DNA of 58,059 nt from Solirubrobacterales bacterium (lineage in GTDB: Bacteria; Actinomycetota; Thermoleophilia; Solirubrobacterales; 70-9), in the NCBI GenBank assembly GCA_020438445.1, contig JAGQUO010000002.1:1-58059 (forward strand), in the 5' to 3' direction. A program made the position numbers and the translations under genes. The number at the start of each line of letters is the position of its first letter. The stretch's first letter is position 1. The notes beneath the pieces are model-generated. The model ran no database searches and was not told the DNA's origin. It was given only the letters and a program-made list of their open reading frames with translations. Below are positions 34,864 to 51,173 of this stretch, piece after piece.

Positions 34864-35718
34864 ATGGCGAGCACTCTGAGCGAGCTCGAGCTTCATTCGA
34901 GCGGCAAGGTACGGGAGATCTACGAGGACGGCGACGAGCTGGTCATGGTCGCCTCCGACCGGATCTCGGCTTTCGACGTCGTCCTGCCGGAGCCGATACC
35001 GGACAAGGGCCGGGTGCTGACGCAGATGTCGATCTTCTGGTTCGAGACCACGGGCCAGATCGTCCCCAACCACCTGATCAGCGAGGACGTGCCCGACGAG
35101 GTCGCCGGCCGCGCGATCAGGGTCAGGAAGCTCGAGATGTACCCGGTCGAATGCGTCGTGCGGGGCTATCTCTCGGGTTCCGGTTGGAAGGAGTACAAGG
35201 AGTCGCGATCGGTCTGCGGGATCGAGCTTCCGGACGGCCTGCAGGAGTCCGACCAGCTGCCGGAGCCGATCTTCACCCCCGCCACGAAGGCCGAGATCGG
35301 CGAGCACGACGAGAACATCGACTTCGATCGCGCCTGCGAGATCGTCGGCTCACGGCCGCTGATGGAGGAGCTCCGCAGGGTGTCGATCGAGCTCTACGAG
35401 CACGCCCGGATGCACGCTCTCGAGCGCGGGATCATCCTCGCCGACACGAAGTTCGAGTTCGGCTCGGCGCCCGGTGCCGAGGTCGTGCTCGGCGACGAGG
35501 TGCTGACTCCGGACTCGTCCCGCTTCTGGCCGGCCGACGACTACGAGCCCGGTCGCGGACAGGCCTCCTTCGACAAGCAGTTCGTCCGCGACTACCTGAA
35601 CGAGCAGGGCTGGGACCACTCGCCCCCGGCGCCGCCGCTGCCGCCGGAGGTCATCGCCGCCACGACCGCGAAGTACCGCGAGGCCTACGAGCGCATCACC
35701 GGCCGCTCGCTCGACTGA
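34864..35718 (+). CDS. purC: SAICAR synthetase
   Basis: Joins aspartate to CAIR with ATP. At 284 residues it belongs to the longer PurC form. Landmarks: SGKVREIYEDGDELVMVASD at the start, VVRGYLSGSGWKEYK, ILADTKFEFG and DSSRFWPADDYEPG near residue 220. The ATG directly follows a TAGCCT box, so the message should be leaderless. purC is 3.2 kb from purB, with wall-related genes between. A cupin gene follows after 4 bases. Confidence 0.96.
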   Translation: MASTLSELELHSSGKVREIYEDGDELVMVASDRISAFDVVLPEPIPDKGRVLTQMSIFWFETTGQIVPNHLISEDVPDEVAGRAIRVRKLEMYPVECVVRGYLSGSGWKEYKESRSVCGIELPDGLQESDQLPEPIFTPATKAEIGEHDENIDFDRACEIVGSRPLMEELRRVSIELYEHARMHALERGIILADTKFEFGSAPGAEVVLGDEVLTPDSSRFWPADDYEPGRGQASFDKQFVRDYLNEQGWDHSPPAPPLPPEVIAATTAKYREAYERITGRSLD

Positions 35719-39220: not shown

Positions 39221-40150
39221 ATGGCTCTCTTCTCGAGGAAGTCCAGGGAACCCGCGCGGCCTCCGGTGCCGTTCATCGTCGGCGTCGGCCGCTCCGGGAC
39301 GACGATGCTGCGGCTGATGCTGGACGCGCATCCGGACCTCGCGATCCCGCCCGAGACCCATTTCGTCCCCGAGCTGATCGACGCGATCGAGGCCGGGGCT
39401 ACGCCCGAGCAGGCCGTCGAGACGATGACCGCGGTCCGCCAGTGGGGAGATCTCGACACCGACCCGGCCGACGTCGTCGCCCGCTGGAAGCAGCTCGACG
39501 AGTTCGCACCCGGGCCGGCGCTCCGCTCCTTCTACGAGATGTACGCCGAGCGGCAGGGCAAGCCCCGGTACGGCGAGAAGACGCCCGCCTACGTCAAGAA
39601 CATGATCAAGATCGAGGCCGCGATGCCGGAGGCGCGGTTCATCCACGTGATCCGTGACGGGCGCGACGTCGCCCTGTCGCGTTGGAAGCGGACGCTCGGG
39701 GACAAGGACCCCGCGCCCGCCGGCCAGGTCGCCGAGACCTGGCAGCGGCGGATCCGGCGCGCCCAGCGCCACGGCCGCAAGGTCTCCCACTACCTCGAGC
39801 TCCGCTACGAGGACCTGGTCACCGACACCGAGCCGAACCTGCACCGGATCGCCGATTTCCTCGAGCTGCCCTGGGATCCGGTGATGCTGCGTTACTACGA
39901 GCACGCGGCCGAGCGGATGGCGGAGATGGCACGCGACCTGCCGGCGACCGACGGCAAGCCCACCCGGCCCGGTGAGGAGCGGATGCAGGCACACGCGATG
40001 ACTCAGAAGCCGCCGGATCCGAGCGCGATGTACCGGTGGAAGGAGAAGATGTCGCCCGAGGACGTCGCCGCCTTCGACGCCGCCGCGGGCGAGCTGCTCT
40101 CAGACCTCGGCTACGAGGTCGGGACCGGGACCGCGGCGACCGGCGCGTGA
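39221..40150 (+). CDS. Sulfotransferase, PETHF type (copy 1)
   Basis: A 309-residue PAPS-dependent sulfotransferase. The 5'-phosphosulfate loop is [18 protein letters not shown] (21-38), then the family-typical PPETHFVPELI, the GKPRYGEKTP segment, and the 3'-phosphate motif [12 protein letters not shown]. The C-terminus ends in LLSDLGYEV, a tail seen in most copies here. The protein is soluble, so sulfate would be added in the cytoplasm, before export of the product. It shares a GTGA overlap with the O-methyltransferase gene, linking sulfation and methylation. The acceptor is probably the sugar product of the adjacent glycosyltransferases (inference). Confidence 0.88.
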   Translation: MALFSRKSREPARPPVPFIVGVGRSGTTMLRLMLDAHPDLAIPPETHFVPELIDAIEAGATPEQAVETMTAVRQWGDLDTDPADVVARWKQLDEFAPGPALRSFYEMYAERQGKPRYGEKTPAYVKNMIKIEAAMPEARFIHVIRDGRDVALSRWKRTLGDKDPAPAGQVAETWQRRIRRAQRHGRKVSHYLELRYEDLVTDTEPNLHRIADFLELPWDPVMLRYYEHAAERMAEMARDLPATDGKPTRPGEERMQAHAMTQKPPDPSAMYRWKEKMSPEDVAAFDAAAGELLSDLGYEVGTGTAATGA

Positions 40151-40812
40151 GCGATCCGAAGTTCATAGCGCTGACGCCGGAGCTGCACGAGTACGTCGTC
40201 CGCCACGGCGCCCGCGAGGATGGGGCGCTGGCAGCCGTGCGCGAGAGCACGGCGGCGCTGGGCGACGTGGCGGTGATGCAGATCTCACCCGACCAGGGCG
40301 CGCTCATGACCATGCTCGCGCGGCTCTCGGGGGCATCCCGCGCGATCGAGCTCGGCACCTTCACCGGGTACTCGGCGATCTGCATCGCCCGGGGGCTCGC
40401 CGACGGCGGGCTGCTCACGGCCTGCGAGCTCGACCCCGAGCGGGCGGAGACCGCCCGGGCGAACTTCGAGGCGGCGGACGTCGCCGACCGGATCGACGTC
40501 GTCGTCGGGCCGGCCGCCGAGACGCTCGCCGGGCTGACCGAGACCGGGCCCGGGACGTTTGACCTCGCCTTCATCGATGCCGACAAGACCGGCTACCCCG
40601 GCTACTACGAGGCATGCCTGACGCTGCTGCGGCCGGGCGGGCTGATCGTCCTCGACAACGTGCTTCGCGACGGCACCGTGCTCGACCCGCCCGCCGACGA
40701 CGAGGGCGGCCGTGCGATCGCGGCGCTGAACGAGTCGATCGCGGAGGACGATCGGGTCGACGTCGCGATGCTCGGGATCGCCGACGGGATCACGCTCGCC
40801 CGCAAGCGCTGA
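40147..40812 (+). CDS. Class I O-methyltransferase (caffeoyl-CoA OMT-like)
   Basis: A 221-residue SAM-dependent O-methyltransferase. Landmarks: MQISPDQGALM, AIELGTFTGYSAICIARGL (SAM-binding), LTACELDPE, LAFIDADKTGYPGYYE (metal-binding Asp region) and GLIVLDNVLRDG. These are typical of the Mg-dependent OMT family. Bacterial members methylate many small phenols and sugars, so the substrate here is open. The GTG start overlaps the sulfotransferase stop, and the glycosyltransferase start follows after 1 base, making a tight three-gene unit. Confidence 0.88.
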   Translation: MSDPKFIALTPELHEYVVRHGAREDGALAAVRESTAALGDVAVMQISPDQGALMTMLARLSGASRAIELGTFTGYSAICIARGLADGGLLTACELDPERAETARANFEAADVADRIDVVVGPAAETLAGLTETGPGTFDLAFIDADKTGYPGYYEACLTLLRPGGLIVLDNVLRDGTVLDPPADDEGGRAIAALNESIAEDDRVDVAMLGIADGITLARKR

Positions 40813-40813
40813 G

Positions 40814-41953
40814 ATGCGGATCGGGATCGTCAGCAAGTGGTCTGCGAGCGGCCAGGCCGTCGTCTCCCGCCAGATCCGCTCCGCGCTCGACGAGCTCGGT
40901 CACGAGACGTCCGTGCTCGCCCGGCCCGGGTCGGGGCCGCGCGCACGGCAGGCGTCCGAGGGCGAGCGCGACCCCGTCTGGGATCAGCCCGGCGTGACCG
41001 CTGCCTCGGCGCACGACGTCCCCCTGGCCGAGTACGAGGACTGGGCCCGCGCCAACTCGCTCGAGGCGATCCTCTTCGACGAGAACTACCAGTGGGACGA
41101 GGTCGCCGCCCTGCGCGGAGCCGGCATCCGCACGATCGGCCGCTTCGTCTGGGAGTACTTCGCCGCCGAGCACCTGGATCCGGCGCGCGAGGCCTACGAC
41201 ACGATCTACTCGCTGACCCGCTGCGAGCGCGACCGCTACGCGGAGATGGGCCTCGAGACCCCCTACGTCCAGTGGGGCATCCACCCGGAGTTGATCGCCG
41301 CCGTTCCCGATCGTGGAACGCATATGGCGGGCGGGCCGCAGGCCCGGAGCACACATGCGCAGGTATACCCAGCGGAGGATTCCACCGGAGTCATCTCCTT
41401 CTACTTCCCCGGCTCCTTTCTCGGGCGCCGCAAGCCCATCCGCAAGGTCATCAAGGGATTCGGCAGGGCCGAGGGCGAGCACCTACGGCTGTTGATCAAC
41501 GCGCAGGTGCCGCGGAACGACGCGGCCCTGCGTGAGGCCGCCGCGGCCGATCCGCGGATCGAGCTGATGCTCGAGGACGAGCCCGAAGCAGAGCACCGTG
41601 CCCGCTTCGCCGCCTGCGACGTCTGCCTCGCCCCGTCGCGATGGGAGGGCCTGGGTCTGCCGCTGTTCGAGGCGACCGCCTTCGGGATCCCGATCATCAC
41701 CAACGACAAGCCGCCGATGTCGGAGATGGTCCTCGACGGGCGCAGCGGGATCCTCGTGCCCTCGATCCAGAACGGCACCGCGCGCTCCGGGATCCCCGCC
41801 TGGGACCCCGACGTGCCGGCCCTCGCCGCCGCGATCGAGCGGCTCGGCGACGGCGCCGAGCTCGAGCGGATGCGGGCGGGGGTCGCCGAGCTCGCCGCCG
41901 AGCGATCGTGGTCGCGGACCGTGAGCGACCTCGGCGCCCTGATCGGGACCTGA
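40814..41953 (+). CDS. GT4-family glycosyltransferase, WFNRGQ type (paralog 3, variant)
   Basis: A 379-residue paralog. The N-terminal motif is altered to IVSKWSASGQAVVSR, replacing FNRG with SASG. FDENYQWDE replaces FDQNYQFDE. It keeps RTIGRFVWEYF and the catalytic Ex7E pair in RWEGLGLPLFEA. Its inter-domain linker carries about 20 extra residues (from GTHMAGGPQ to YPAEDSTG), encoded by a palindromic repeat region. The changes near the glycine-rich loop suggest a different donor or acceptor from the other copies. It starts 1 base after the O-methyltransferase stop. Confidence 0.86.
   Translation: MRIGIVSKWSASGQAVVSRQIRSALDELGHETSVLARPGSGPRARQASEGERDPVWDQPGVTAASAHDVPLAEYEDWARANSLEAILFDENYQWDEVAALRGAGIRTIGRFVWEYFAAEHLDPAREAYDTIYSLTRCERDRYAEMGLETPYVQWGIHPELIAAVPDRGTHMAGGPQARSTHAQVYPAEDSTGVISFYFPGSFLGRRKPIRKVIKGFGRAEGEHLRLLINAQVPRNDAALREAAAADPRIELMLEDEPEAEHRARFAACDVCLAPSRWEGLGLPLFEATAFGIPIITNDKPPMSEMVLDGRSGILVPSIQNGTARSGIPAWDPDVPALAAAIERLGDGAELERMRAGVAELAAERSWSRTVSDLGALIGT
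41319..41390 (+). repeat. Palindromic repeat region inside glycosyltransferase 3
   Basis: CGCATATG (41319-41326) and CACATGCG (41352-41359) form nearly matching inverted arms. Between them lies GGGCC-gca-GGCCC, and after them the word AGCGGAGGATTCC (41371-41383) resembles the element at 26.4 kb. Similar CGCATATG/CATATGCG arms lie at the start of glycosyltransferase 5 (48189-48224). Confidence 0.45.
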
Positions 41954-41989
41954 CCGCGGCCCGCAGGGCGGCTACCCTCCGCGCTCGCG

Positions 41990-42682
41990 ATGAGCGACAG
42001 CGACAACATCAGCGAGCCCGCCGGCGAGGAGCCCGCGGCGGCCGGCAAGGCGAGCCGATGGGAGCAGTTCCGGCTGCCGGTCGAGCTCTCCGGCCGTTCC
42101 TTCCTCGACGTCGGCTGCTGGGAGGGCGCCCACTGCGCCGACGCGGCCCGCCGCGGAGCCGAGCCCGTCGTCGGCATCGACATCTGCACCGGCGAGGACC
42201 TCCGCGCGAACGTCGACCGCTACGGCTTCGAGTTCCTGCAGATGGACGTCTTCGGCGAGCTCTGGCACGGGCTCGGCAGCTTCGACGTGGTCCTCTGCTC
42301 CGGCCTGATCTACAGCGTCCCGAGCCCGATGGCACTGCTGTTCCGCCTCGCGAAGGTGACCGGGGAGCTGCTCGTGATCGAGTCGGCGTCGACGACGAAG
42401 GGCGGCGAGGAGCCGATCATGCTCTTCCGCGGCGAGGAGGACGGCAACCCGTCGAACTGGTGGATCCCCAACGTCGCCTGCCTCGAGCAGATGCTCCACG
42501 TCGCCGGGTTCGCCGGCGTCTCGACCGTCTGGGAGGAGCCCCGCGAGGAGCACTGGACCCGCGTCTGCCTCCACGCCGTGCCTCGTGACGGGGTCGACCG
42601 TGAGCGGCTGCTCCCGCGCAAGCCACGGCTGATGAGCGTCCGCGGCGGCGATCGCGGCCGCGGCCGCCGCGAAACGGGCTGA
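41990..42682 (+). CDS. Class I SAM-dependent methyltransferase (CmoB-like fold)
   Basis: A 230-residue methyltransferase. After a polar N-terminus of about 25 residues come FLDVGCWEGAHCADAARRGA (SAM loop), VVGIDICTG, FEFLQMDVFGELW and FDVVLCSGLIYSVPSPMALL. A segment with NPSNWWIPNVACLEQML follows. This pattern is seen in methyltransferases near surface-glycan genes and in the CmoB family. The C-terminus is Arg/Gly-rich. It lies between two glycosyltransferases (36 bases after one, 13 before the next), so it probably methylates an intermediate of the same pathway. Confidence 0.8.
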   Translation: MSDSDNISEPAGEEPAAAGKASRWEQFRLPVELSGRSFLDVGCWEGAHCADAARRGAEPVVGIDICTGEDLRANVDRYGFEFLQMDVFGELWHGLGSFDVVLCSGLIYSVPSPMALLFRLAKVTGELLVIESASTTKGGEEPIMLFRGEEDGNPSNWWIPNVACLEQMLHVAGFAGVSTVWEEPREEHWTRVCLHAVPRDGVDRERLLPRKPRLMSVRGGDRGRGRRETG

Positions 42683-42695
42683 ACCGGGGCGGACG

Positions 42696-43772
42696 GTGAA
42701 CGTCGGCATCGTCAGCAAGTGGTTCAACCGCGGCCAGCCGGTCGTCGGCCGCCACCTCCGCTCCGCCGTCGACGAGCTCGGCCATCGCAGCTTCGTCCTC
42801 GCCAAGCCGCGCCGGGAGAAGGGGCCGATGGCGGGCGCGCTCGAGCGGACCGGCGTCTGGGACCAGCCCGGCGTCACCGCGGCCTCGAGCTTCGAGACGC
42901 CGCTCGAGGAGTACGAGGCCTGGGTGGAGGCCAACTCGCTCGACGTCATCCTCTGCGACCAGAACTACCAGTTCGAGGAGCTCGCGGAGCTCCGTCGCTC
43001 CGGCGTCCGCACGATCGGCCGGTTCGTCTGGGAGCACTTCACCCGCGAGCACGTCGAGCCGGCCCTCGCCGCCTACGACGTCGTCTACTCGGTCACCCGG
43101 TGCGAGCGGGAGCGCTACGCCGGCTGGGGCCTTCGGACTCCGCGGGTGCCCTGGGGCATCCATCCCGAGCTGCTCGCGGTGCCGGCTCACCACAGCACCG
43201 ACGGCCTCGTCCGCTTCGTCTTCCCCGGCGGCTTCCTCGGCCACCGCAAGCCCGCCGAGCCGGTCGTCGAGGCATTCGCCGCGGCCCGCGGCGAGCACCT
43301 GCGCCTGCTCGTCAAGGCACAGGTCGAGCGCTCTCGCCTCGAGGCGCTGACGCCGATGATCGAGGCGGACCCGCGGATCGAGCTGCGCCTCGCCGACGAG
43401 CCCTGGCACGAGCACCTCGCCGCGATCGCCGCCAACGACGTATCGATCTCACCGTCCCGCTGGGAGGGCCTGGGGCTGCCGCTGTACGAGGCGGTCGCCT
43501 TCGGGATGCCGACGATCGCCAACGACGACCCGCCGATGAACGAGGTCGTGGTCGACGACGTCAACGGCGTCCTCGTCCCCTCCCACCCCGACGGGACCGC
43601 GCGGTCCGGGATCCCGGCCCGCCGCCCGGACATCGGCGCGATGACGGCCGCGATCGAGCACGTGGCCGATCCGACGGTGCTGGAGCGCCTGCGGCGCGGC
43701 GCCGAGGCCTCCCGCGCCGACCACCGCTGGGAGTCGACGGTCGCCGCGCTCGGCGAGCTGATCGTCACCTAG
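42696..43772 (+). CDS. GT4-family glycosyltransferase, WFNRGQ type (paralog 4)
   Basis: A 358-residue paralog with VGIVSKWFNRGQPVVGRHLR at the start, CDQNYQFEEL, RTIGRFVWEHF and the Ex7E motif in RWEGLGLPLYEA. NDDPPMNEVVVDDVNGVLVP is near the C-terminus. The linker is short. It starts at GTG 42696, 13 bases after the methyltransferase. Its stop overlaps the stop of the converging pseudogene in the sequence CTAG. Donor and acceptor unknown. Confidence 0.87.
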   Translation: MNVGIVSKWFNRGQPVVGRHLRSAVDELGHRSFVLAKPRREKGPMAGALERTGVWDQPGVTAASSFETPLEEYEAWVEANSLDVILCDQNYQFEELAELRRSGVRTIGRFVWEHFTREHVEPALAAYDVVYSVTRCERERYAGWGLRTPRVPWGIHPELLAVPAHHSTDGLVRFVFPGGFLGHRKPAEPVVEAFAAARGEHLRLLVKAQVERSRLEALTPMIEADPRIELRLADEPWHEHLAAIAANDVSISPSRWEGLGLPLYEAVAFGMPTIANDDPPMNEVVVDDVNGVLVPSHPDGTARSGIPARRPDIGAMTAAIEHVADPTVLERLRRGAEASRADHRWESTVAALGELIVT

Positions 43773-43925
43773 GAATCGTGAATCCGCCTGAGCTCCTCGA
43801 GATCGATCTCGTCCCGATCGCGGCCGCCGGCTGACTTCATCGCGACCAGGTCCTCGTAGGAGCAGATCAGGAGCTCGAGGTCGCCGAGGCTCGCGCCGAC
43901 GGCAGCCGCTGGGAGATCCGGTGGC
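43769..43925 (-). pseudogene. Remnant of a nucleotidyltransferase (AbiEii/DUF6036-like) gene
   Basis: Only about 45 C-terminal residues remain recognisable: SLGDLELLICSYEDLVAMKS, then AGGRDRDEIDLEELRRIHDS. This pattern (a YEDL...MK...GR..D..DLEEL tail) ends the nucleotidyltransferase partner of some toxin-antitoxin-like pairs. The catalytic N-terminal part is missing and the upstream DNA reads as the end of another small gene, so a deletion is likely. It lies on the opposite strand to the cassette. Confidence 0.5.
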
Positions 43926-44105
43926 TCACCGGGCAGCCCGGCGGACGCCGGCTCGCAGCTCGGCAGCGAGGCCGCTGAGCTCCAGGGCCGCCTCGATCCG
44001 CTCCGACATCGTCGTCTCACGGAATCGGCGCCGGCGCTCGGCCAGCGCGATCGCATCGAGCTCGCGCATCGCGGCGGCATCGGTCGGGTTCCTCTTCACG
44101 GCCAT
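43926..44105 (-). CDS. Small hypothetical protein, possible antitoxin-like partner
   Basis: This 59-residue ORF reads MAVKRNPTDAAAMRELDAIA, continues ALAERRRRFRETTMSERIEA and ends in a short helical tail. It is charged and helical, like the short partner that often precedes AbiEii/DUF6036-type nucleotidyltransferases. A TAACTT box lies 9 bases upstream. The partner gene downstream is truncated, and the end of this ORF may also have been altered by the same deletion. Function is not demonstrated. Confidence 0.5.
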   Translation of the reverse strand: MAVKRNPTDAAAMRELDAIALAERRRRFRETTMSERIEAALELSGLAAELRAGVRRAAR

Positions 44106-44160
44106 TGCAGCTTGAAGTTAGCCCGCCCGCGACTCGAATGCGTGCGCCGGAGAGTCGTCC

Positions 44161-44166
44161 TACAAT
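44161..44166 (+). promoter_or_regulatory. -10 box upstream of the sulfotransferase run
   Basis: TACAAT lies about 96 bases before the start of the first of four consecutive sulfotransferase genes. It would give a leader of about 85-90 bases. No strong -35 box was found. Confidence 0.4.
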
Positions 44167-44261
44167 GCGGCGTTCGCCCGGCGCCCCTGAGACGACGCGT
44201 CGCCGGGATCGTCCCGGAGTCCCGCCCGACGCCCGCGGACGGTGGGAACCCTCTGCAATCG

Positions 44262-45236
44262 ATGCCACTACCGAGCCCACAGAAAGCCTGGCGTCAGTCC
44301 AGGAGCCGCCGCGCCTCCGCGCGGGGAGCCGAGCGAACCCCGGCGCCGTTCGTCGTCGGCGTCAACCGGTCGGGGACGACCCTGCTGCGGATGATGCTCG
44401 ACGCGCATCCGCAGCTCACCGTTCCGCCAGAGACCCACTTCGTCCCGGAGCTGATCGAGGCCGCCGAGTCGAGGGACCCGACCCCCGAGTCGCTGCTGGC
44501 GACGATCACCAGGCAACGCGAGTGGGGTGACTTCGGGCTGTCCGAGGAGGAGCTCCTCGAGCGGTTCCGGGCGATCGAGCCGCTCAACGCCGGCGACGCC
44601 CTCCGCGCCTTCTACGGCGCCTACGCCGAGCGCGTCGGCAAGCCGCGCTGGGGCGAGAAGACCCCGATCTACGTCAAGAGCATGCGCAAGATCGAGCGGG
44701 CGCTGCCGGAGGCGCGGTTCGTCCACGTCATCCGCGATGGCCGTGACGTCGCGCTCTCGATCCGCGACCGCGCCGTCAAGGAGCACCCGATCGACCGGAT
44801 CGCCGAGCGCTGGGTGCGGCGGATCACCCGCGCCCGCGAGCAGGCGCAGCGGCTCGCCCACTACGAGGAGATCCGCTACGAGAACCTGATCCTCGACACC
44901 CGGCCGACCCTGGAGACGGTCTGCGAGTTCTTCGAGCTGCCCTGGGACGACGCGCTGCTCGACTACCACCGGCGATCGGCCGAGCGGCTCGAGGAGATGA
45001 AGCGCGAGCTGCCCGACGACGGCAAGCGGACGACGCTGAGCGTCGAGCGCCGGATGGCGACTCACGCGCGGACGACCGAGAAGCCGGACCCGAAGCGCGT
45101 CAGCCGCTGGCGCGAGAGCATGAACCGCTCCGACCGCGAGCTGTTCGAGTCGATCGCGGGCCCCCTCCTGGTCGAGCTCGGCTACCAGATCGGCGACGGG
45201 CCCGGAACCGAGCCGCGCGGTGACGAGGACAGTTGA
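44262..45236 (+). CDS. Sulfotransferase, PETHF type (copy 2)
   Basis: A 324-residue sulfotransferase. After a basic N-terminus comes [18 protein letters not shown] (PAPS loop), PPETHFVPELI, GKPRWGEKTP and [12 protein letters not shown]. The C-terminus ends in LLVELGYQI. The first 72 bases of the PAPS-loop region are identical to copy 3. The ATG at 44262 is chosen because it is the nearest start before the basic leader; the frame stays open to 44112. It starts a run of four coupled sulfotransferase genes. Confidence 0.85.
   Translation: MPLPSPQKAWRQSRSRRASARGAERTPAPFVVGVNRSGTTLLRMMLDAHPQLTVPPETHFVPELIEAAESRDPTPESLLATITRQREWGDFGLSEEELLERFRAIEPLNAGDALRAFYGAYAERVGKPRWGEKTPIYVKSMRKIERALPEARFVHVIRDGRDVALSIRDRAVKEHPIDRIAERWVRRITRAREQAQRLAHYEEIRYENLILDTRPTLETVCEFFELPWDDALLDYHRRSAERLEEMKRELPDDGKRTTLSVERRMATHARTTEKPDPKRVSRWRESMNRSDRELFESIAGPLLVELGYQIGDGPGTEPRGDEDS
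44339..44410 (+). repeat. 72-base identical tract, copy 1 (sulfotransferase 2)
   Basis: Identical to 45319-45390 over all 72 bases. It encodes the PAPS loop and the start of the next helix (from PFVVGVNRSGTTLL to MLDAHP). The flanks diverge at once. Confidence 0.85.
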
Positions 45237-46219
45237 TCGCCCGCCGACAGTCCAGCTGGCGGCATCCCGTCTTCACCCTCTCACGGCTGCTGAGCCGCCG
45301 CCGCGAGCAGCAACGGGACCCGGCGCCGTTCGTCGTCGGCGTCAACCGGTCGGGGACGACCCTGCTGCGGATGATGCTCGACGCGCATCCCGAGCTGACG
45401 ATCCCGCCGGAGACACACTTCATCCCCGAGGTCATCCGCCGCGCCAACCACGAGAACACCAGGCGGCGGCTGATCCGCTCGATCACCAAGCACCCGCGCT
45501 GGGGTGACTTCGGCCTCGACGAGGACGAGTTCCGGGCCCGCGCCAAGCGGGTCAAGCCGCTGACGGCGGCGGGCGCGATCCGCTGCTTCTACGAGCTCTA
45601 CGCGGAGAAGCAGGGCAAGCCGCGCTGGGGCGACAAGACGCCGCGGTACATGCGGGCGATGCCGCGGATCGCCCGTGCCCTCCCGGAGGCCCGCTTCATC
45701 CACCTGATCCGTGACGGCCGCGACGTCGCGCTCTCCCAGCGCGAGCGGGTGATCGGCGGGCAGGACGTTGCGATGGCCGCGATGGCCGAGCGCTGGCAGC
45801 GGCGGATCGTCGCCGCCCGCGAGGGCGCCGCCGAGATCCGGTCCGGCGCCTACCTCGAGATCCGCTACGAGGACCTCGTCACCGACACCGAGTCGACGCT
45901 GCGGACCGTCTGCGACTTCATCGGCATCCGCTTCGACGCGGGCATGCTCGACTACCACCGGCGGGCCGAGGAGCGGCTCGCGGAGATGAACCGGGACCTG
46001 GACAACTCCGACAGCGGCGTCGTCAGGACCGCCGACAACCGGCTCGCGGCGCACGCGCTGACGACCGAGCCGCCGACGACGAACCGCTGCGGGCGCTGGC
46101 GGAGCGAGATGACCGGCGATGAGGTCGCGGAGTTCGAGCGCGGCGCCGGCGCCCTGCTGTCCGAGCTCGGCTACGAGCTCGGGAGCGAGCGCGCCGCCGC
46201 ACCGGAGGGAGTCGAATGA
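45233..46219 (+). CDS. Sulfotransferase, PETHF type (copy 3)
   Basis: A 328-residue sulfotransferase with a basic N-terminus, [39 protein letters not shown] and [12 protein letters not shown]. The C-terminal tail is LLSELGYEL. It starts at TTG 45233 inside TTGA, overlapping the stop of copy 2, and ends in an ATGA overlap with copy 4. The acceptor loops after PETHF differ strongly from the other copies, which suggests a different acceptor position. Confidence 0.86.
   Translation: MIARRQSSWRHPVFTLSRLLSRRREQQRDPAPFVVGVNRSGTTLLRMMLDAHPELTIPPETHFIPEVIRRANHENTRRRLIRSITKHPRWGDFGLDEDEFRARAKRVKPLTAAGAIRCFYELYAEKQGKPRWGDKTPRYMRAMPRIARALPEARFIHLIRDGRDVALSQRERVIGGQDVAMAAMAERWQRRIVAAREGAAEIRSGAYLEIRYEDLVTDTESTLRTVCDFIGIRFDAGMLDYHRRAEERLAEMNRDLDNSDSGVVRTADNRLAAHALTTEPPTTNRCGRWRSEMTGDEVAEFERGAGALLSELGYELGSERAAAPEGVE
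45319..45390 (+). repeat. 72-base identical tract, copy 2 (sulfotransferase 3)
   Basis: Perfect match to 44339-44410, with 980 bases between equivalent positions. The rest of the two genes is much less similar. Confidence 0.85.
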
Positions 46220-47160
46220 GGCTGCCGCTGCGACGCAAGGGATCGACCGGGCCGCCGGTCCCGTTCATCGTCGGCGTGACGCGCTCCGGGACGACGCTGC
46301 TCCGGCTGATGCTGGACGCCCATCCCGACCTCGCGATCCCGCCCGAGACCCACTTCGTGCCGGCGCTGATCAAGGCGACCCGCAAGCGCGGCGTCACCTG
46401 CGAGGAGGCGCACGGGATCGTCACCGGGCACCGTCAGTGGGGCGATTTCAACCTCGACTCGGCCGCGCTGCTGGACCGCTACTGCGAGCTCGACCGGATC
46501 GACCCCGAGACGACCATCCGCGCGTTCTTCGAGCTCTACGCCGAGGGCCAGGGCAAGCCGCGGTGGGGAGACAAGACGCCGAACTACGTCAAGCGGATGA
46601 AGCAGATCGAGCGCTGGATTCCCGAGGCGAGGTTCGTGCACATGATCCGCGACGGCCGCGACGCCGCGCTCTCCCGGTTCAAGCGCCTGCTCAAGGACCC
46701 GCCGCCGATGGAGGTCGTGGCGGAGCGCTGGGTCCGCAAGATCGAGGGCGCGCGCGCCGACGGTGCCGGCCTCGACTACATCGAGGTCCAGTACGAGTCG
46801 CTGGTCCGCGACACCGAGACCGAGCTGCGCCGGGTCTCCGAGTTCCTCGAGCTCCCCTGGGACGACTCGATGCTCCACTACTACGAGCGCGCCGAGGAGA
46901 GGCTGGCCGAGATGCACCGCGACCTGCCGTCCGCCGAGGGCAAGCCGCTGCGGCCCGCCGATCACCGCAAGGAGGCCCACGTGCTGACCTCGAAGCCGCC
47001 GGACCCGAGCCGGCTCGCGCGCTGGAAGCACGACATGTCACCCGAGGACATCGCCGCCTTCGAGAGCGTCGCCGCGCCGCTCCTGCGCGAGCTCGACTAC
47101 GAGGTGATCAGCGACGGCGCGACCCCGGCTCCCGCGAGCGAGGGGGAGGCCGCGTCATGA
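46216..47160 (+). CDS. Sulfotransferase, PETHF type (copy 4)
   Basis: A 314-residue sulfotransferase: [18 protein letters not shown] near residue 20, PPETHFVPALI, GKPRWGDKTP, and HMIRDGRDAALS with Ala in place of Val. The C-terminal region has SPEDIAAF and LLRELDYEV. It starts at ATG 46216 within ATGA after copy 3 and ends in ATGA with copy 5. It most resembles copy 1 in the N-terminal third (PFIVGV and DLAIPPETHFVP). Confidence 0.87.
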   Translation: MRLPLRRKGSTGPPVPFIVGVTRSGTTLLRLMLDAHPDLAIPPETHFVPALIKATRKRGVTCEEAHGIVTGHRQWGDFNLDSAALLDRYCELDRIDPETTIRAFFELYAEGQGKPRWGDKTPNYVKRMKQIERWIPEARFVHMIRDGRDAALSRFKRLLKDPPPMEVVAERWVRKIEGARADGAGLDYIEVQYESLVRDTETELRRVSEFLELPWDDSMLHYYERAEERLAEMHRDLPSAEGKPLRPADHRKEAHVLTSKPPDPSRLARWKHDMSPEDIAAFESVAAPLLRELDYEVISDGATPAPASEGEAAS

Positions 47161-48086
47161 CGCCCTCGCCGCTGAGCCGGATCCGCCGCGACGGCGACGC
47201 CCTCGACGAGGCGCGCCCGCCGGCGCCGTTCGTGGTCGGGCTGACCCGCTCCGGCACGACGCTGCTGCGGATGATGCTCGACGCCCACCCGGAGCTGGCG
47301 GTCCCGCCCGAGACCCATTTCGTTCCCGACCTGATCAAGGCCGCGCGAGCCGAGCAGGGCGCCGACGCGATGCTCGAGGCGATGACCTCGAACCGGACCT
47401 GGAGCGACTTCGGGATCGGCGAGGAGGAGATGCGCGAGCGGCTGGCGGTGGTTCCCTCGGGCGACGCGGCCGGCGCCGTCCGGGCGTTCTTCGAGGCATA
47501 CGCGGAGAAGCAGGGCAAGCCGCGGTGGGGCGACAAGACGCCCGCCTACATGCTCTCGGTCCAGCGGATCGGCCGGACCCTGCCGGAATCGCGGTTCATC
47601 CACCTGATCCGCGACGGCCGCGATGTCGCGCTGTCGCAGACCGCGCGGGCACTGAACGAGCAGCCGCCACCCGCCGAGCAGGCGGCACGCTGGGTCAAGC
47701 GGATCCGGAAGTCGCGCGACCAGGCCGCGACGCTGAAGGGACCCCGCTACGTCGAGGCCCGCTACGAGGACCTCGTCCGCGACCCCGAGACGACGCTGCG
47801 GCGAATCTGCGAGTTCGTCGACCTGCCCTGGGAAGAGGAGATGCTGCGCTACCACGAGCGCGCCGCCGAGCGCCTGGCCGAGATGGCGGGGAGCCTGCGC
47901 GCCGAAGGCACCCATGCCGAGCAGGAGGCGGGATACCGGATCGCCAACCATGCGCCGACGACGAAGCCGCCCGATCCGGCGAAGCTCGACAAGTGGCGCC
48001 GCGAGATGAGCCCGGGCGACCTCGCCGCCTACGACGCGGTCGCGGGCGAGTTGCTGAGCGAGCTGGGTTATGAGGTGACGTCGTGA
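47157..48086 (+). CDS. Sulfotransferase, PETHF type (copy 5)
   Basis: A 309-residue sulfotransferase: [51 protein letters not shown] and a LLSELGYEV tail. It starts at ATG 47157, overlapping copy 4 by 4 bases, and is the last of the uninterrupted run. The next gene is a glycosyltransferase after 133 bases of untranslated DNA holding a palindromic repeat. Confidence 0.87.
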   Translation: MTPSPLSRIRRDGDALDEARPPAPFVVGLTRSGTTLLRMMLDAHPELAVPPETHFVPDLIKAARAEQGADAMLEAMTSNRTWSDFGIGEEEMRERLAVVPSGDAAGAVRAFFEAYAEKQGKPRWGDKTPAYMLSVQRIGRTLPESRFIHLIRDGRDVALSQTARALNEQPPPAEQAARWVKRIRKSRDQAATLKGPRYVEARYEDLVRDPETTLRRICEFVDLPWEEEMLRYHERAAERLAEMAGSLRAEGTHAEQEAGYRIANHAPTTKPPDPAKLDKWRREMSPGDLAAYDAVAGELLSELGYEVTS

Positions 48087-48188
48087 CCGCCCGCCGGCTC
48101 ATCGGCGGCGCACCGTCCCCGGCACCCCCGCAGGGCGGAGCCCGAGGAGGTGGCCGTGATCTCGGCGCCGCCGCGGTCCGACAGCGAG

Positions 48189-48224
48189 CGCATATGCCCG
48201 GACGCGAAGCGGAGGACATATGCG
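48189..48224 (+). repeat. Palindromic element carrying the RBS and start of glycosyltransferase 5
   Basis: CGCATATG (48189-48196) and CATATGCG (48217-48224) are perfect 8-base inverted arms. The 20-base middle ends in GGAGGA, a ribosome-binding site, and the ATG start codon at 48220 lies inside the right arm. The word CGAAGCGGAGGAC also occurs in glycosyltransferase 1. A folded arm could hide the start codon. Confidence 0.5.
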
Positions 48225-49329
48225 TATAGGTCTGGTCACCAAGTGGTTCAACCGCGGGCAGGCGTTCGTCTCCCGCTACATCCGCGACGCGCTCGATGCC
48301 CGCGGGCACGAGACCTTCATCCTCGCCCGGCCGACCCGCGACAAGGGGCCGATGGCCGCGCACGTCGACCGCAGCGGCGTCTGGGACCAGCCCGGGGTCA
48401 CCGAGGCCTCCGACTGGGAGGTCCCGTTCGAGGAGTACGAGCGGTGGATCGCCGACAACCGGATCGAGGCCGTCCACTGGGACAACTGCTACCAGCACGA
48501 GGAGATCGCCCGGATCCGCGAGTCGGGTGTGCTCACCGTCGGTCGCTTCGTCTGGGAGATGTTCTCGCCCGAGGACGCCGAGCCCGCCGCCCGCGCCTAC
48601 GACGTCCTCTACTCGCTGACCCGCTGCGAGCAGCGCCGCTACGCCGAGCTCGGGATCGAATCCCCCTACGTCCGGTGGGGACTGCATCCCGAGTTGCTGC
48701 AGGCTGCGGACGCCGCGAAGGCGGCGGGCCCGCATCCGCTCGCCGGCGATGACGAGACCGTGACCTTCTACTTCCCCGGGGCCCTGCTCGGGCCCCGAAA
48801 GCCGCACAAGGAGGTCGTCGAGGCGTTCTCGGCGGCTCGCGGCGACAACCTCCGGCTGATCTTCAAGGCCCAGCTCGAGCGGCGGATGAACTACCTCGAG
48901 AAGGCCGCGGCGGCGGATCCAAGGATCGAGCTCGTGATCGACGACATGCCGACCGACGAGCACCTGCGGCTGTTCGCCTCCTGCGACGTCTGCCTCGGCC
49001 CGAGCCGCTGGGAGGGCCTGGGGCTGTTCCTCTACGAGGCCATCGCCTTCGGGATGGCGCAGATCACCAACGACAGCCCGCCGATGAACGAGGTCGTCGT
49101 CGACGGGGTCAACGGGCTGCTGGTCGGGGATCGCCGGGACGGCGCCGCCTCCTCCGGGATTCCATCGATGAAGCCGGAGGTCGGCGATCTGACCGCGGCG
49201 ATCGAGCGCATCGCCGACCCCGGACTCCGAGCCGAGCTCGCGGCCGGTGCGCGGGCGAGCCGCGAGGAGTACGCCTGGGAGAAGACCGTCGACGGATACG
49301 CCGAGCTGTTCGCCGGGGTGAGGGCGTGA
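48220..49329 (+). CDS. GT4-family glycosyltransferase, WFNRGQ type (paralog 5)
   Basis: A 369-residue paralog: MRIGLVTKWFNRGQAFVSRY, WDNCYQHEEI in place of FDQNYQFDE, GRFVWEMF, and Ex7E in RWEGLGLFLYEA. NDSPPMNEVVVDGVNGLLVG is near the C-terminus. The changed central motif (DNCYQHEE) suggests a different acceptor. It is translationally coupled (GTGA) to the tandem sulfotransferase fusion, so this glycosyltransferase and sulfotransferase pair probably acts on one product. Confidence 0.87.
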   Translation: MRIGLVTKWFNRGQAFVSRYIRDALDARGHETFILARPTRDKGPMAAHVDRSGVWDQPGVTEASDWEVPFEEYERWIADNRIEAVHWDNCYQHEEIARIRESGVLTVGRFVWEMFSPEDAEPAARAYDVLYSLTRCEQRRYAELGIESPYVRWGLHPELLQAADAAKAAGPHPLAGDDETVTFYFPGALLGPRKPHKEVVEAFSAARGDNLRLIFKAQLERRMNYLEKAAAADPRIELVIDDMPTDEHLRLFASCDVCLGPSRWEGLGLFLYEAIAFGMAQITNDSPPMNEVVVDGVNGLLVGDRRDGAASSGIPSMKPEVGDLTAAIERIADPGLRAELAAGARASREEYAWEKTVDGYAELFAGVRA

Positions 49330-51173
49330 AGGCCCGGCGCGAGATCCTCCGCTCGATCCACGGATGGCGCACCCGTCGCTCGGCCGTCCGCCGCGGCGCG
49401 TCCGGTCCGCCGCCGGCGCCGTTCGTCGTCGGCGCGACCCGGTCGGGAACGACGCTGCTGCGCCTGATGCTCGACGCGCACCCGCAGATCGCGATCCCAT
49501 CCGAGACCCATTTCATCCCCGAGCTGGTCTCCGCCCGCGACAAGCACGGCGCCACGCGGGAGCAGATGCTCGAGCTCCTGGCCTCGCACCGCCGCTGGGG
49601 CGACTTCACGATCGAGCCGGCGGAGCTGGCCGAGCGCTGGGCGGCGATCGAGCCGCTGACCGGCGCCGACGCCGTGCGCGCGTTCTTCGCCCTCTACGCC
49701 GACAAGCACGGCAAGCACGGCGCCCGCTGGGGCGACAAGACGCCCGGATACGTCAAGTCGATGCGGGAGATCCAGGGCTACCTGCCCGAGGCGCGCTTCA
49801 TCCACCTGATCCGCGACGGCCGCGACGTCGCGCTCTCCGTCCTCAAGCAGACCTGGGGCCCGCAGTCGGTCGAAGCGGCGGCCGAGAAGTGGCGCAGCCG
49901 GGTCAACCGCGGGCGCTCGCAGGCTCCGTACCTCGGCTACTACCTGGAGGTCAAGTTCGAGGACCTGATCCTCCAGACCGAGCGCGAGCTGCGGCGGATC
50001 TGCGAGTTCATCGAGCTCGACTTCGACGAGGACATGCTCGGCTATCACCTGACGGCCGAGCAGCGCCTGCAGGAGAAGGCGCGGGCGCTGCCCCGGGCGC
50101 ACGGCGAGGCCCAGTCGGCCGAGAAGCGGCTGATGAGCCACGCCAAGACCTTCGAGCCTCCGAACCCGGACATGATCGGGACCTGGAGGGAGCGGATGAG
50201 CCCGGCCGACCGCGCCGCCTACGAGGCGCTCGCGGGCGACCTCCTCGACGAGCTCGGATACGAGGTCGACGGCGCTCGGGGTTCCGGCGAGGTCCACACT
50301 CCGCGGCGCGGACCGCGGCTCCCGCGCCCGCTCCGCCGGGCGGTCGCGGTCGCCAAGCACGCGACCGGCGTCAGCGACCCGGCCGAGCCGCGGACTCCGG
50401 CTCCGTTCCTGATCGGTGCCGCCCGCTCGGGGACCGACCTGCTCGGCGCGATGATGGGCGCCCACTCCGAGCTCGCGATGCTGCACGAGACCGGGTTCGT
50501 CCCGCGGCTCGCCGAGATGATCCGCTCCGAGCCGATGACCGTCGAGCGGGTGATCAGGGTGATGGCCGCCGCCGGACCGCTCGAGGCCCACGGCCTCAGC
50601 GAGGAGGAGATGCGGGCGCGGCTCGGAGCGCTCGAAGATCTCAAGGCCGCCGCCGTGCTCCGCTGCTTCTACGAGGCGGCCGCCGAGAGCGGCGGCGCCT
50701 CCCGGTGGGGCGACGACACCCCCTCCTACCTGAAGCGGATGCGCCGGATCCAACGGGCGCTGACCGAGGCGCGCTTCATCCACGTCGTCCGCGACGGGCG
50801 GGACACCCTCGCCGCCCGGCCGGCCGAGATCAACGCCGGCGCGGCGATCGCGACCGGGCAGCGCTGGAACAAGAAGGTCCGGTCGGTCCAGGTCCAGGCG
50901 CACCTGATGAACCACCTGCTGGAGGTCCGCTACGAGGACCTGATCGCGGACCCCGAGCGGGAGCTCCGGCGCGTCTGCGAGTTCATCGAGCTGCCGTTCG
51001 AGGCCGGGATGGCCTCGCCGCCGGACCGCTCCCGGATCGAGGCCGCGCTCGGCCCGGTCGGAAGCTGGCGCGAGCGGCTCGAGCCGGATCAGCTGGAGGC
51101 CTTCGAGGAGGTCGCGGGGCCGATGCTGGACGAGCTCGGCTACCGCGAGGGAGCGGCGAGCGCCGTCCGCTGA
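49326..51173 (+). CDS. Tandem sulfotransferase fusion with a degenerate second domain
   Basis: One 615-residue protein made of two complete sulfotransferase domains. Domain 1 (about 1-320) has [37 protein letters not shown] and [12 protein letters not shown]. Domain 2 (about 355-610) keeps the layout but changes key places: [18 protein letters not shown] has Asp for the second loop Thr, PPETHF becomes LHETGF, and [10 protein letters not shown] replaces RDGRDVALS. Domain 2 may bind PAPS poorly and serve as a scaffold or acceptor-binding unit. A linker of about 35 basic residues joins them. It starts at GTG, overlapping glycosyltransferase 5 by 4 bases, and closes the cassette. Confidence 0.85.

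What the first reader, a model, noticed from the sequence alone, without database searches (positions are those of the whole stretch)
49326..51173. Tandem sulfotransferase fusion with a diverged second domain
A single 615-residue protein holds two sulfotransferase domains. The first is canonical. The second keeps the fold markers but has SGTD for SGTT, LHETGF for PPETHF and [10 protein letters not shown] for RDGRDVALS. This may be an inactive partner that shapes acceptor binding, or a domain with a new donor.
Basis: seen in the sequence. Interest (0 to 1): 0.6.

Follow-up and report, generated by a model that had tools for sequence, protein, structure and literature searches.

The report
Active sulfotransferase fused to dead twin
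An uncultured actinobacterium and its near relatives make one protein holding a normal sulfate-transferring enzyme joined to a second copy that keeps the shape but has lost the parts needed to bind the sulfate donor, so the second half is most likely a built-in structural partner for the first and not a second enzyme.

Summary
Window 49326-51173 (+) is one intact 615-aa ORF with two Sulfotransfer_3 domains. Domain 1 (D1) is canonical. Four genomes carry the fusion: all three of this genus and one of another genus (56% identical), so it is not an assembly error. D2 is not drifting: dN/dS is 0.19-0.26 within the genus, like D1. But constraint has shifted: donor motifs are relaxed (SGT becomes GGI in the other genus), while the helices that form the dimer interface in human tyrosylprotein sulfotransferase (TPST) are kept as well as the motifs. 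D2 still folds confidently as a sulfotransferase (pLDDT 93; best match TPST2, Z 19.8). A tree rejects D2 as a copy of D1; it is another paralogue, fused behind a gene that is still single-domain in a sister genus. Best reading: a fused pseudo-sulfotransferase acting as intramolecular partner of D1. The domain arrangement was not resolved (pTM 0.62) and no activity is measured.

The parts
49326..51173 (+). Fusion gene, 615 aa: active-type sulfotransferase D1 + linker + pseudo-sulfotransferase D2
   Evidence: ORF, Pfam, orthologues in G001, G002, G007
49416..50270 (+). D1 (residues 31-315), canonical TPST-like Sulfotransfer_3 domain with [24 protein letters not shown] and HxxTxxPP
   Evidence: Pfam; fold match to TPST1/2 Z 23.1
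50271..50396 (+). Linker (residues 316-357), low confidence with one predicted helix (334-347); no ATG/GTG/TTG in frame here in this genome
50397..51143 (+). D2 (residues 358-606), degenerate sulfotransferase domain
   Evidence: pLDDT 93 as a separate domain; fold match to TPST2 Z 19.8
50424..50438 (+). D2 PSB loop RSGTD (R367-D371): Thr43 equivalent is Asp (Glu in G007)
50487..50489 (+). D2 E388, equivalent of the catalytic-base Glu (kept in genus, Asp in G007)
   Evidence: role from TPST E99, PMC5562738
50505..50702 (+). D2 helices at the position of the TPST dimer helices a2-a4 (residues 394-459), conserved as strongly as the motifs
   Evidence: equivalence inferred from position between the Glu and WGDxTP
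50715..50717 (+). D2 D464 where D1 and relatives have the catalytic Lys (K138; TPST2 K158)
   Evidence: PMC5562738
50814..50816 (+). D2 A497 where D1 and 114/116 relatives have the 3'-phosphate-binding Ser (S171)
50040..50165 (+). D1 C-terminal segment (about residues 239-280) that has no counterpart in D2
   Evidence: alignment A4
48220..49329 (+). GT4 family glycosyltransferase, overlapping the fusion gene start by 4 bp
47157..48086 (+). Single-domain sulfotransferase paralogue
46216..47160 (+). Single-domain sulfotransferase paralogue
45233..46219 (+). Single-domain sulfotransferase paralogue
44112..45236 (+). Single-domain sulfotransferase paralogue (start codon probably later than listed)
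39221..40150 (+). Single-domain sulfotransferase paralogue

Best explanation
The protein is a PAPS-dependent sulfotransferase with intact motifs (D1) permanently joined to a paralogue (D2) that is, by sequence, catalytically dead. Shown: D2 is predicted to keep the sulfotransferase fold but has lost donor- and catalysis-determining residues; it is under purifying selection, is found only fused, and descends from a different paralogue than D1. Inferred: D2 takes the place of the second subunit of the TPST-type homodimer, packing through the helices between the base Glu and WGDxTP, and thereby completes or stabilises D1's single active site, possibly supplying part of the acceptor groove. Also inferred, from the neighbourhood (GT4 glycosyltransferases, O-methyltransferase, five more sulfotransferases): the acceptor is a cell-surface glycan or glycolipid.
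For: Loss of K138, S171 and T43 equivalents in all four D2s against 108/116, 114/116 and 105/116 retention elsewhere. TPST catalytic residues are R78, E99, K158 and S285, and the TPST dimer, formed by helices a2-a4, is reported to complete the active site (PMC5562738). dN/dS of D2 is 0.19-0.26 within the genus, D1 0.11-0.28, dS 0.30-0.42. Shifted constraint: identical sites across the four orthologues are 63/74 (motifs) and 24/68 (helices) in D1, 45/77 and 34/66 in D2; interaction z 3.8, p 1e-4. In five orthologue pairs between the same two genomes only D2 lacks the motif peak (first motif block 0.54 vs 0.83-1.00). D2 folds alone at pLDDT 93 with best match TPST2, Z 19.8, rmsd 4.0, 221 residues. 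D1's sister gene is single-domain at the same GT4-purL site in G005, so D2 looks like an added part. APS kinase is present, so the donor can be made. Precedent for a dead paralogue activating its partner: deoxyhypusine synthase (PMC3663545, abstract).
Against: The helix region's higher conservation in D2 than in D1 is only marginal on its own (p 0.08). R367, R489 and, within the genus, E388 are kept, so weak ligand binding by D2 is possible. Only four sequences, three of them close. Whether D1 or its single-domain sisters dimerise is unknown. No biochemistry exists.
Confidence: 0.6

Rival explanations
1. D2 is an acceptor-binding module: its emptied donor pocket and shortened C-terminal cap hold a second stretch of the glycan (or an already sulfated sugar) and position it for, or feed it to, D1.
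For: Loss of the C-terminal segment may open the site; conserved R367, R489, W514 and the D2-specific AARP motif could bind an anionic sugar. Gene neighbours are glycosyltransferases.
Against: No pocket conservation was measured; the donor-motif regions are the relaxed part of D2.
Confidence: 0.2
2. D2 is a sensor: it still binds PAP, PAPS or another phosphorylated nucleotide without turnover and regulates D1.
For: Both phosphate-contacting Arg (R367, R489) and W514 are invariant in the four D2s.
Against: Ser->Ala at the 3'-phosphate site and an acidic residue in the 5'-phosphosulfate loop; loop further degraded to RGGIE in G007.
Confidence: 0.08
3. D2 is an active enzyme with a different donor or chemistry.
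For: Fold intact; an acidic residue is consistently present at the Thr43 position (D, D, D, E).
Against: The catalytic Lys is not replaced by one consistent residue (D, D, E, S) and the base Glu is Asp in G007, which is not the pattern of a rebuilt active site.
Confidence: 0.05
4. D2 is a decaying remnant of a tandem-array gene that happened to fuse and has no function.
For: Long stem (1.3 changes per site) and relaxed motifs.
Against: dN/dS 0.19-0.26, no stops or frameshifts in four genomes, retained over 12-47% D2 divergence, confident fold.
Confidence: 0.05
5. Assembly or sequencing artefact joining two genes.
For: The genome is a draft in 259 contigs.
Against: The same fusion with the same boundaries is in three other assemblies, one of them in 5 contigs.
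Confidence: 0.02

Closest known systems
Human tyrosylprotein sulfotransferases TPST1/TPST2 (PDB 5wri, 3ap1, 3ap3)
   Same: Closest solved fold and sequence for both domains; D1 keeps equivalents of R78, E99 and K158; TPST works as a dimer that is reported to complete its active site (PMC5562738)
   Different: TPST is a homodimer of active subunits with a tyrosine acceptor; here the two units are fused and one has lost its catalytic residues. About 25% identity, acceptor unknown
Single-domain Sulfotransfer_3 (PF13469) genes in the same tandem array, and D1's sisters in G005/G015/G006
   Same: Same family; D1's direct sister is a 336-aa single-domain protein between GT4 genes and purL in G005
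   Different: No D2; catalytic motifs intact
Synechococcus olefin synthase and CurM sulfotransferase domains (4gox, 4gbm)
   Same: Same structural class (Z 17.8-22.6); sulfotransferase domains inside larger proteins
   Different: Part of polyketide megasynthases; single active domain
Dead-paralogue activators, e.g. trypanosomatid deoxyhypusine synthase (PMC3663545)
   Same: Active or impaired enzyme paired with a catalytically dead paralogue that is kept by selection
   Different: Separate genes and a different enzyme family; activation is measured there, inferred here

Membership tests
Sulfotransfer_3 (PF13469) | Profile match above the curated cut-off | tested here: met
   Both domains; D2 alone 109 bits against a cut-off of 27
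Catalytically competent PAPS sulfotransferase (D1) | 5'-PSB Arg and Thr-Thr, base Glu/His, Lys, 3'-PB Arg and Ser | tested here: met
   R39, T42, T43, E60, K138, R163, S171 all present in D1 of four genomes
Catalytically competent PAPS sulfotransferase (D2) | Same residues | tested here: not met
   T43->D/E, K138->D/E/S, S171->A in all four D2s; E60->D and S40->G in G007
Sulfotransferase fold (D2) | Predicted structure matches solved sulfotransferases | tested here: met
   3ap3 Z 19.8, rmsd 4.0, 221 aligned
Pseudoenzyme | Catalytic residues lost in a conserved fold that selection maintains | tested here: met
Pseudoenzyme | No catalytic activity | not testable with these tools
   Needs an assay of purified D2
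Tyrosylprotein sulfotransferase | Sulfates protein tyrosine | not testable with these tools
   Acceptor unknown; gene neighbours suggest a glycan
TPST-type dimer | Two units pack through helices a2-a4 | tested here: inconclusive
   Conservation shift fits, but the full-length model has pTM 0.62

The most novel reading that the evidence does not exclude
D2 is a repurposed sulfotransferase pocket that binds a new anionic ligand (a sulfated glycan end or a nucleotide) and gates or directs the attached active domain: an allosteric or processive sulfotransferase made by fusing a dead paralogue.
Probability: 0.2. Interest if true: 0.6.

Novelty: new variant of a known kind. Interest (0 to 1): 0.4.

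Why it matters
Pseudoenzymes that serve as partners of active paralogues are known in many families, but the text searches made here in an open-access library turned up no sulfotransferase of this kind. That absence is weak evidence, since most subscription papers are not held. If D2 is a built-in dimer half, the fusion is a natural test of what the second subunit of a TPST-type dimer contributes, because one half can be mutated without touching the other's active site. It would also show how a tandem array of paralogues turns a spare copy into a fixed structural part.

Tried and rejected
Internal duplication of D1 as the origin of D2: rejected by AU test (p 0.004; with the sister single-domain genes p 0.008), with the caveat that D2's stem is long. 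Viral contigs: no relative of D2. Whole family (50 genomes) and a 399-genome sample of the class: no further D2; scores drop from 454 to 213 bits. The full-length AlphaFold run gave confident domains but no confident relative placement, so the interface idea stays inferred. NCBIfam gave no specific name (best NoeE, 38.9 bits against a cut-off of 500). Independent translation of D2 from an internal start: no ATG/GTG/TTG lies between D1 and the D2 motif in this genome and G001 (only CTG), though G002 and G007 have some; considered unlikely as a general rule. A first motif tally merged D1 and D2 by mistake and was replaced.

Full report
What is there. The ORF at 49326-51173 (+) encodes 615 residues with no stop, overlapping the preceding GT4 glycosyltransferase stop by 4 bp. 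Pfam finds Sulfotransfer_3 twice; D2 alone scores 109 bits against a cut-off of 27. The window is contig C193 of a draft genome in 259 contigs. The nearest named records are actinobacterial MAGs, one labelled Conexibacter sp., and several related ones Solirubrobacterales; the order is inferred from these labels.

Not an artefact. The same fusion is in G002 (90% identity), G001 (86%, assembly in 5 contigs) and G007 (56%, another genus). A census of all 50 genomes held for the family finds D2 in exactly these four: all three members of the genus plus G007. In a 399-genome class sample the next-best match falls from 454 to 213 bits and belongs to ordinary single-domain genes. In 79 class genomes scanned with PF13469 at E <= 1e-12, only the orthologues of this gene show two matches in one open frame.

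What D2 has lost. I aligned 116 other sulfotransferase domains (single-domain genes and D1s) with the four D2s. D2 keeps the equivalents of R39, G41, R163, D164, D167 and W189. It changes T43 (105/116) to D, D, D, E; K138 (108/116) to D, D, E, S; S171 (114/116) to A in all four; also R46, D50 and P154. In G007 the decay goes further: RSGTD becomes RGGIE, the base Glu becomes Asp, WGDDTP becomes IGDSTG and RDGRD becomes RDPHD. D2 also lacks about 40 residues of the C-terminal segment that single-domain relatives have. By published work, TPST catalysis uses R78, E99, K158 and S285 (PMC5562738), and a basic residue in one donor motif, the Ser of the other and a Glu/His base are the three essential residues across sulfotransferases (PMC6637879). 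D2 fails the Ser and the Lys. Loss of activity is inferred from sequence, not measured.

Not drifting. Nei-Gojobori dN/dS for D2 within the genus is 0.194, 0.263 and 0.229; for D1 0.110, 0.252 and 0.279. Constraint has moved. Over the four orthologues, identical sites are 63/74 in D1's two motif blocks and 24/68 in the helices between them; in D2 45/77 and 34/66 (interaction z 3.8, p 1.2e-4; the helix contrast alone p 0.08). As an internal control, five orthologue pairs between the same two genomes were compared: four ordinary domains (D1 and three paralogues) have motif-block identity 0.83-1.00 against 0.42-0.71 in the helices, while D2 has 0.54 and 0.68 against 0.59. Block borders were set by hand from the motifs.

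Structure. D2 alone is predicted at mean pLDDT 93.0, pTM 0.90; its best structural matches are TPST2/TPST1 (3ap3 Z 19.8, rmsd 4.0, 221 residues), and the sequence search also picks TPST1. In the full-length model (pLDDT 87, pTM 0.62), D1 matches TPST1 at Z 23.1. The linker is low-confidence and the relative placement of the domains is not established.

Origin. D1's sister group is a set of single-domain genes in G005, G015 and G006 (99/97 support). In G005 that gene lies between GT4 genes and purL, the same site, with one extra ORF before purL. D2 forms its own clade (100/100, stem 1.3) within the family's paralogues, and a D1+D2 clade is rejected (AU p 0.004). So a second paralogue was most likely joined behind D1 in the ancestor of the two genera. 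Loss from the other lineages cannot be excluded, and the long D2 stem leaves its exact sister unresolved.

Setting. The window also holds five single-domain sulfotransferases, three GT4 glycosyltransferases and an O-methyltransferase, with a SAICAR synthetase gene upstream and purL downstream (purL read from the translation). The genome encodes APS kinase. This fits sulfation of a surface glycan or glycolipid; the acceptor is not known.

Mechanism. TPST dimerises through helices a2-a4 and this is reported to complete the active site. The helices at the equivalent position in D2 (394-459) are as conserved as its former motifs. The simplest account is that D2 is a permanent, dead half-dimer for D1. 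Acceptor binding by D2 is the main rival. Retained Arg residues leave weak ligand binding open. A new donor is unlikely because the replacement residues are not consistent between genera.

Verdict. A real, conserved, lineage-restricted fused pseudo-sulfotransferase: a new variant of a known kind (pseudoenzyme partner). Moderately interesting, mechanism unproven.

Noticed in passing
39221-49329: Five single-domain sulfotransferases with three GT4 glycosyltransferases and an O-methyltransferase, several genes overlapping by 4 bp, lying between a SAICAR synthetase gene (34864-35718) and purL (51229 on): a candidate sulfated-glycan cluster among purine genes.
   Followed up: partly
L069:2419-4410 (-): A different sulfotransferase-sulfotransferase fusion in an uncultured Solirubrobacteraceae: two divergent domains (RSGTS and GSGTR loops) with both donor motifs apparently present.
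   Followed up: no
L077:5809-7764 (+): Another apparent double sulfotransferase ORF (RSGTT and RSGTS loops) followed by a C-terminal tail, in a Desulfobulbaceae MAG.
   Followed up: no
L041:5457-7037 (+): In G005 an ORF of up to 526 aa sits on the opposite strand between the single-domain D1 orthologue and purL, where the window has only a short gap.
   Followed up: no
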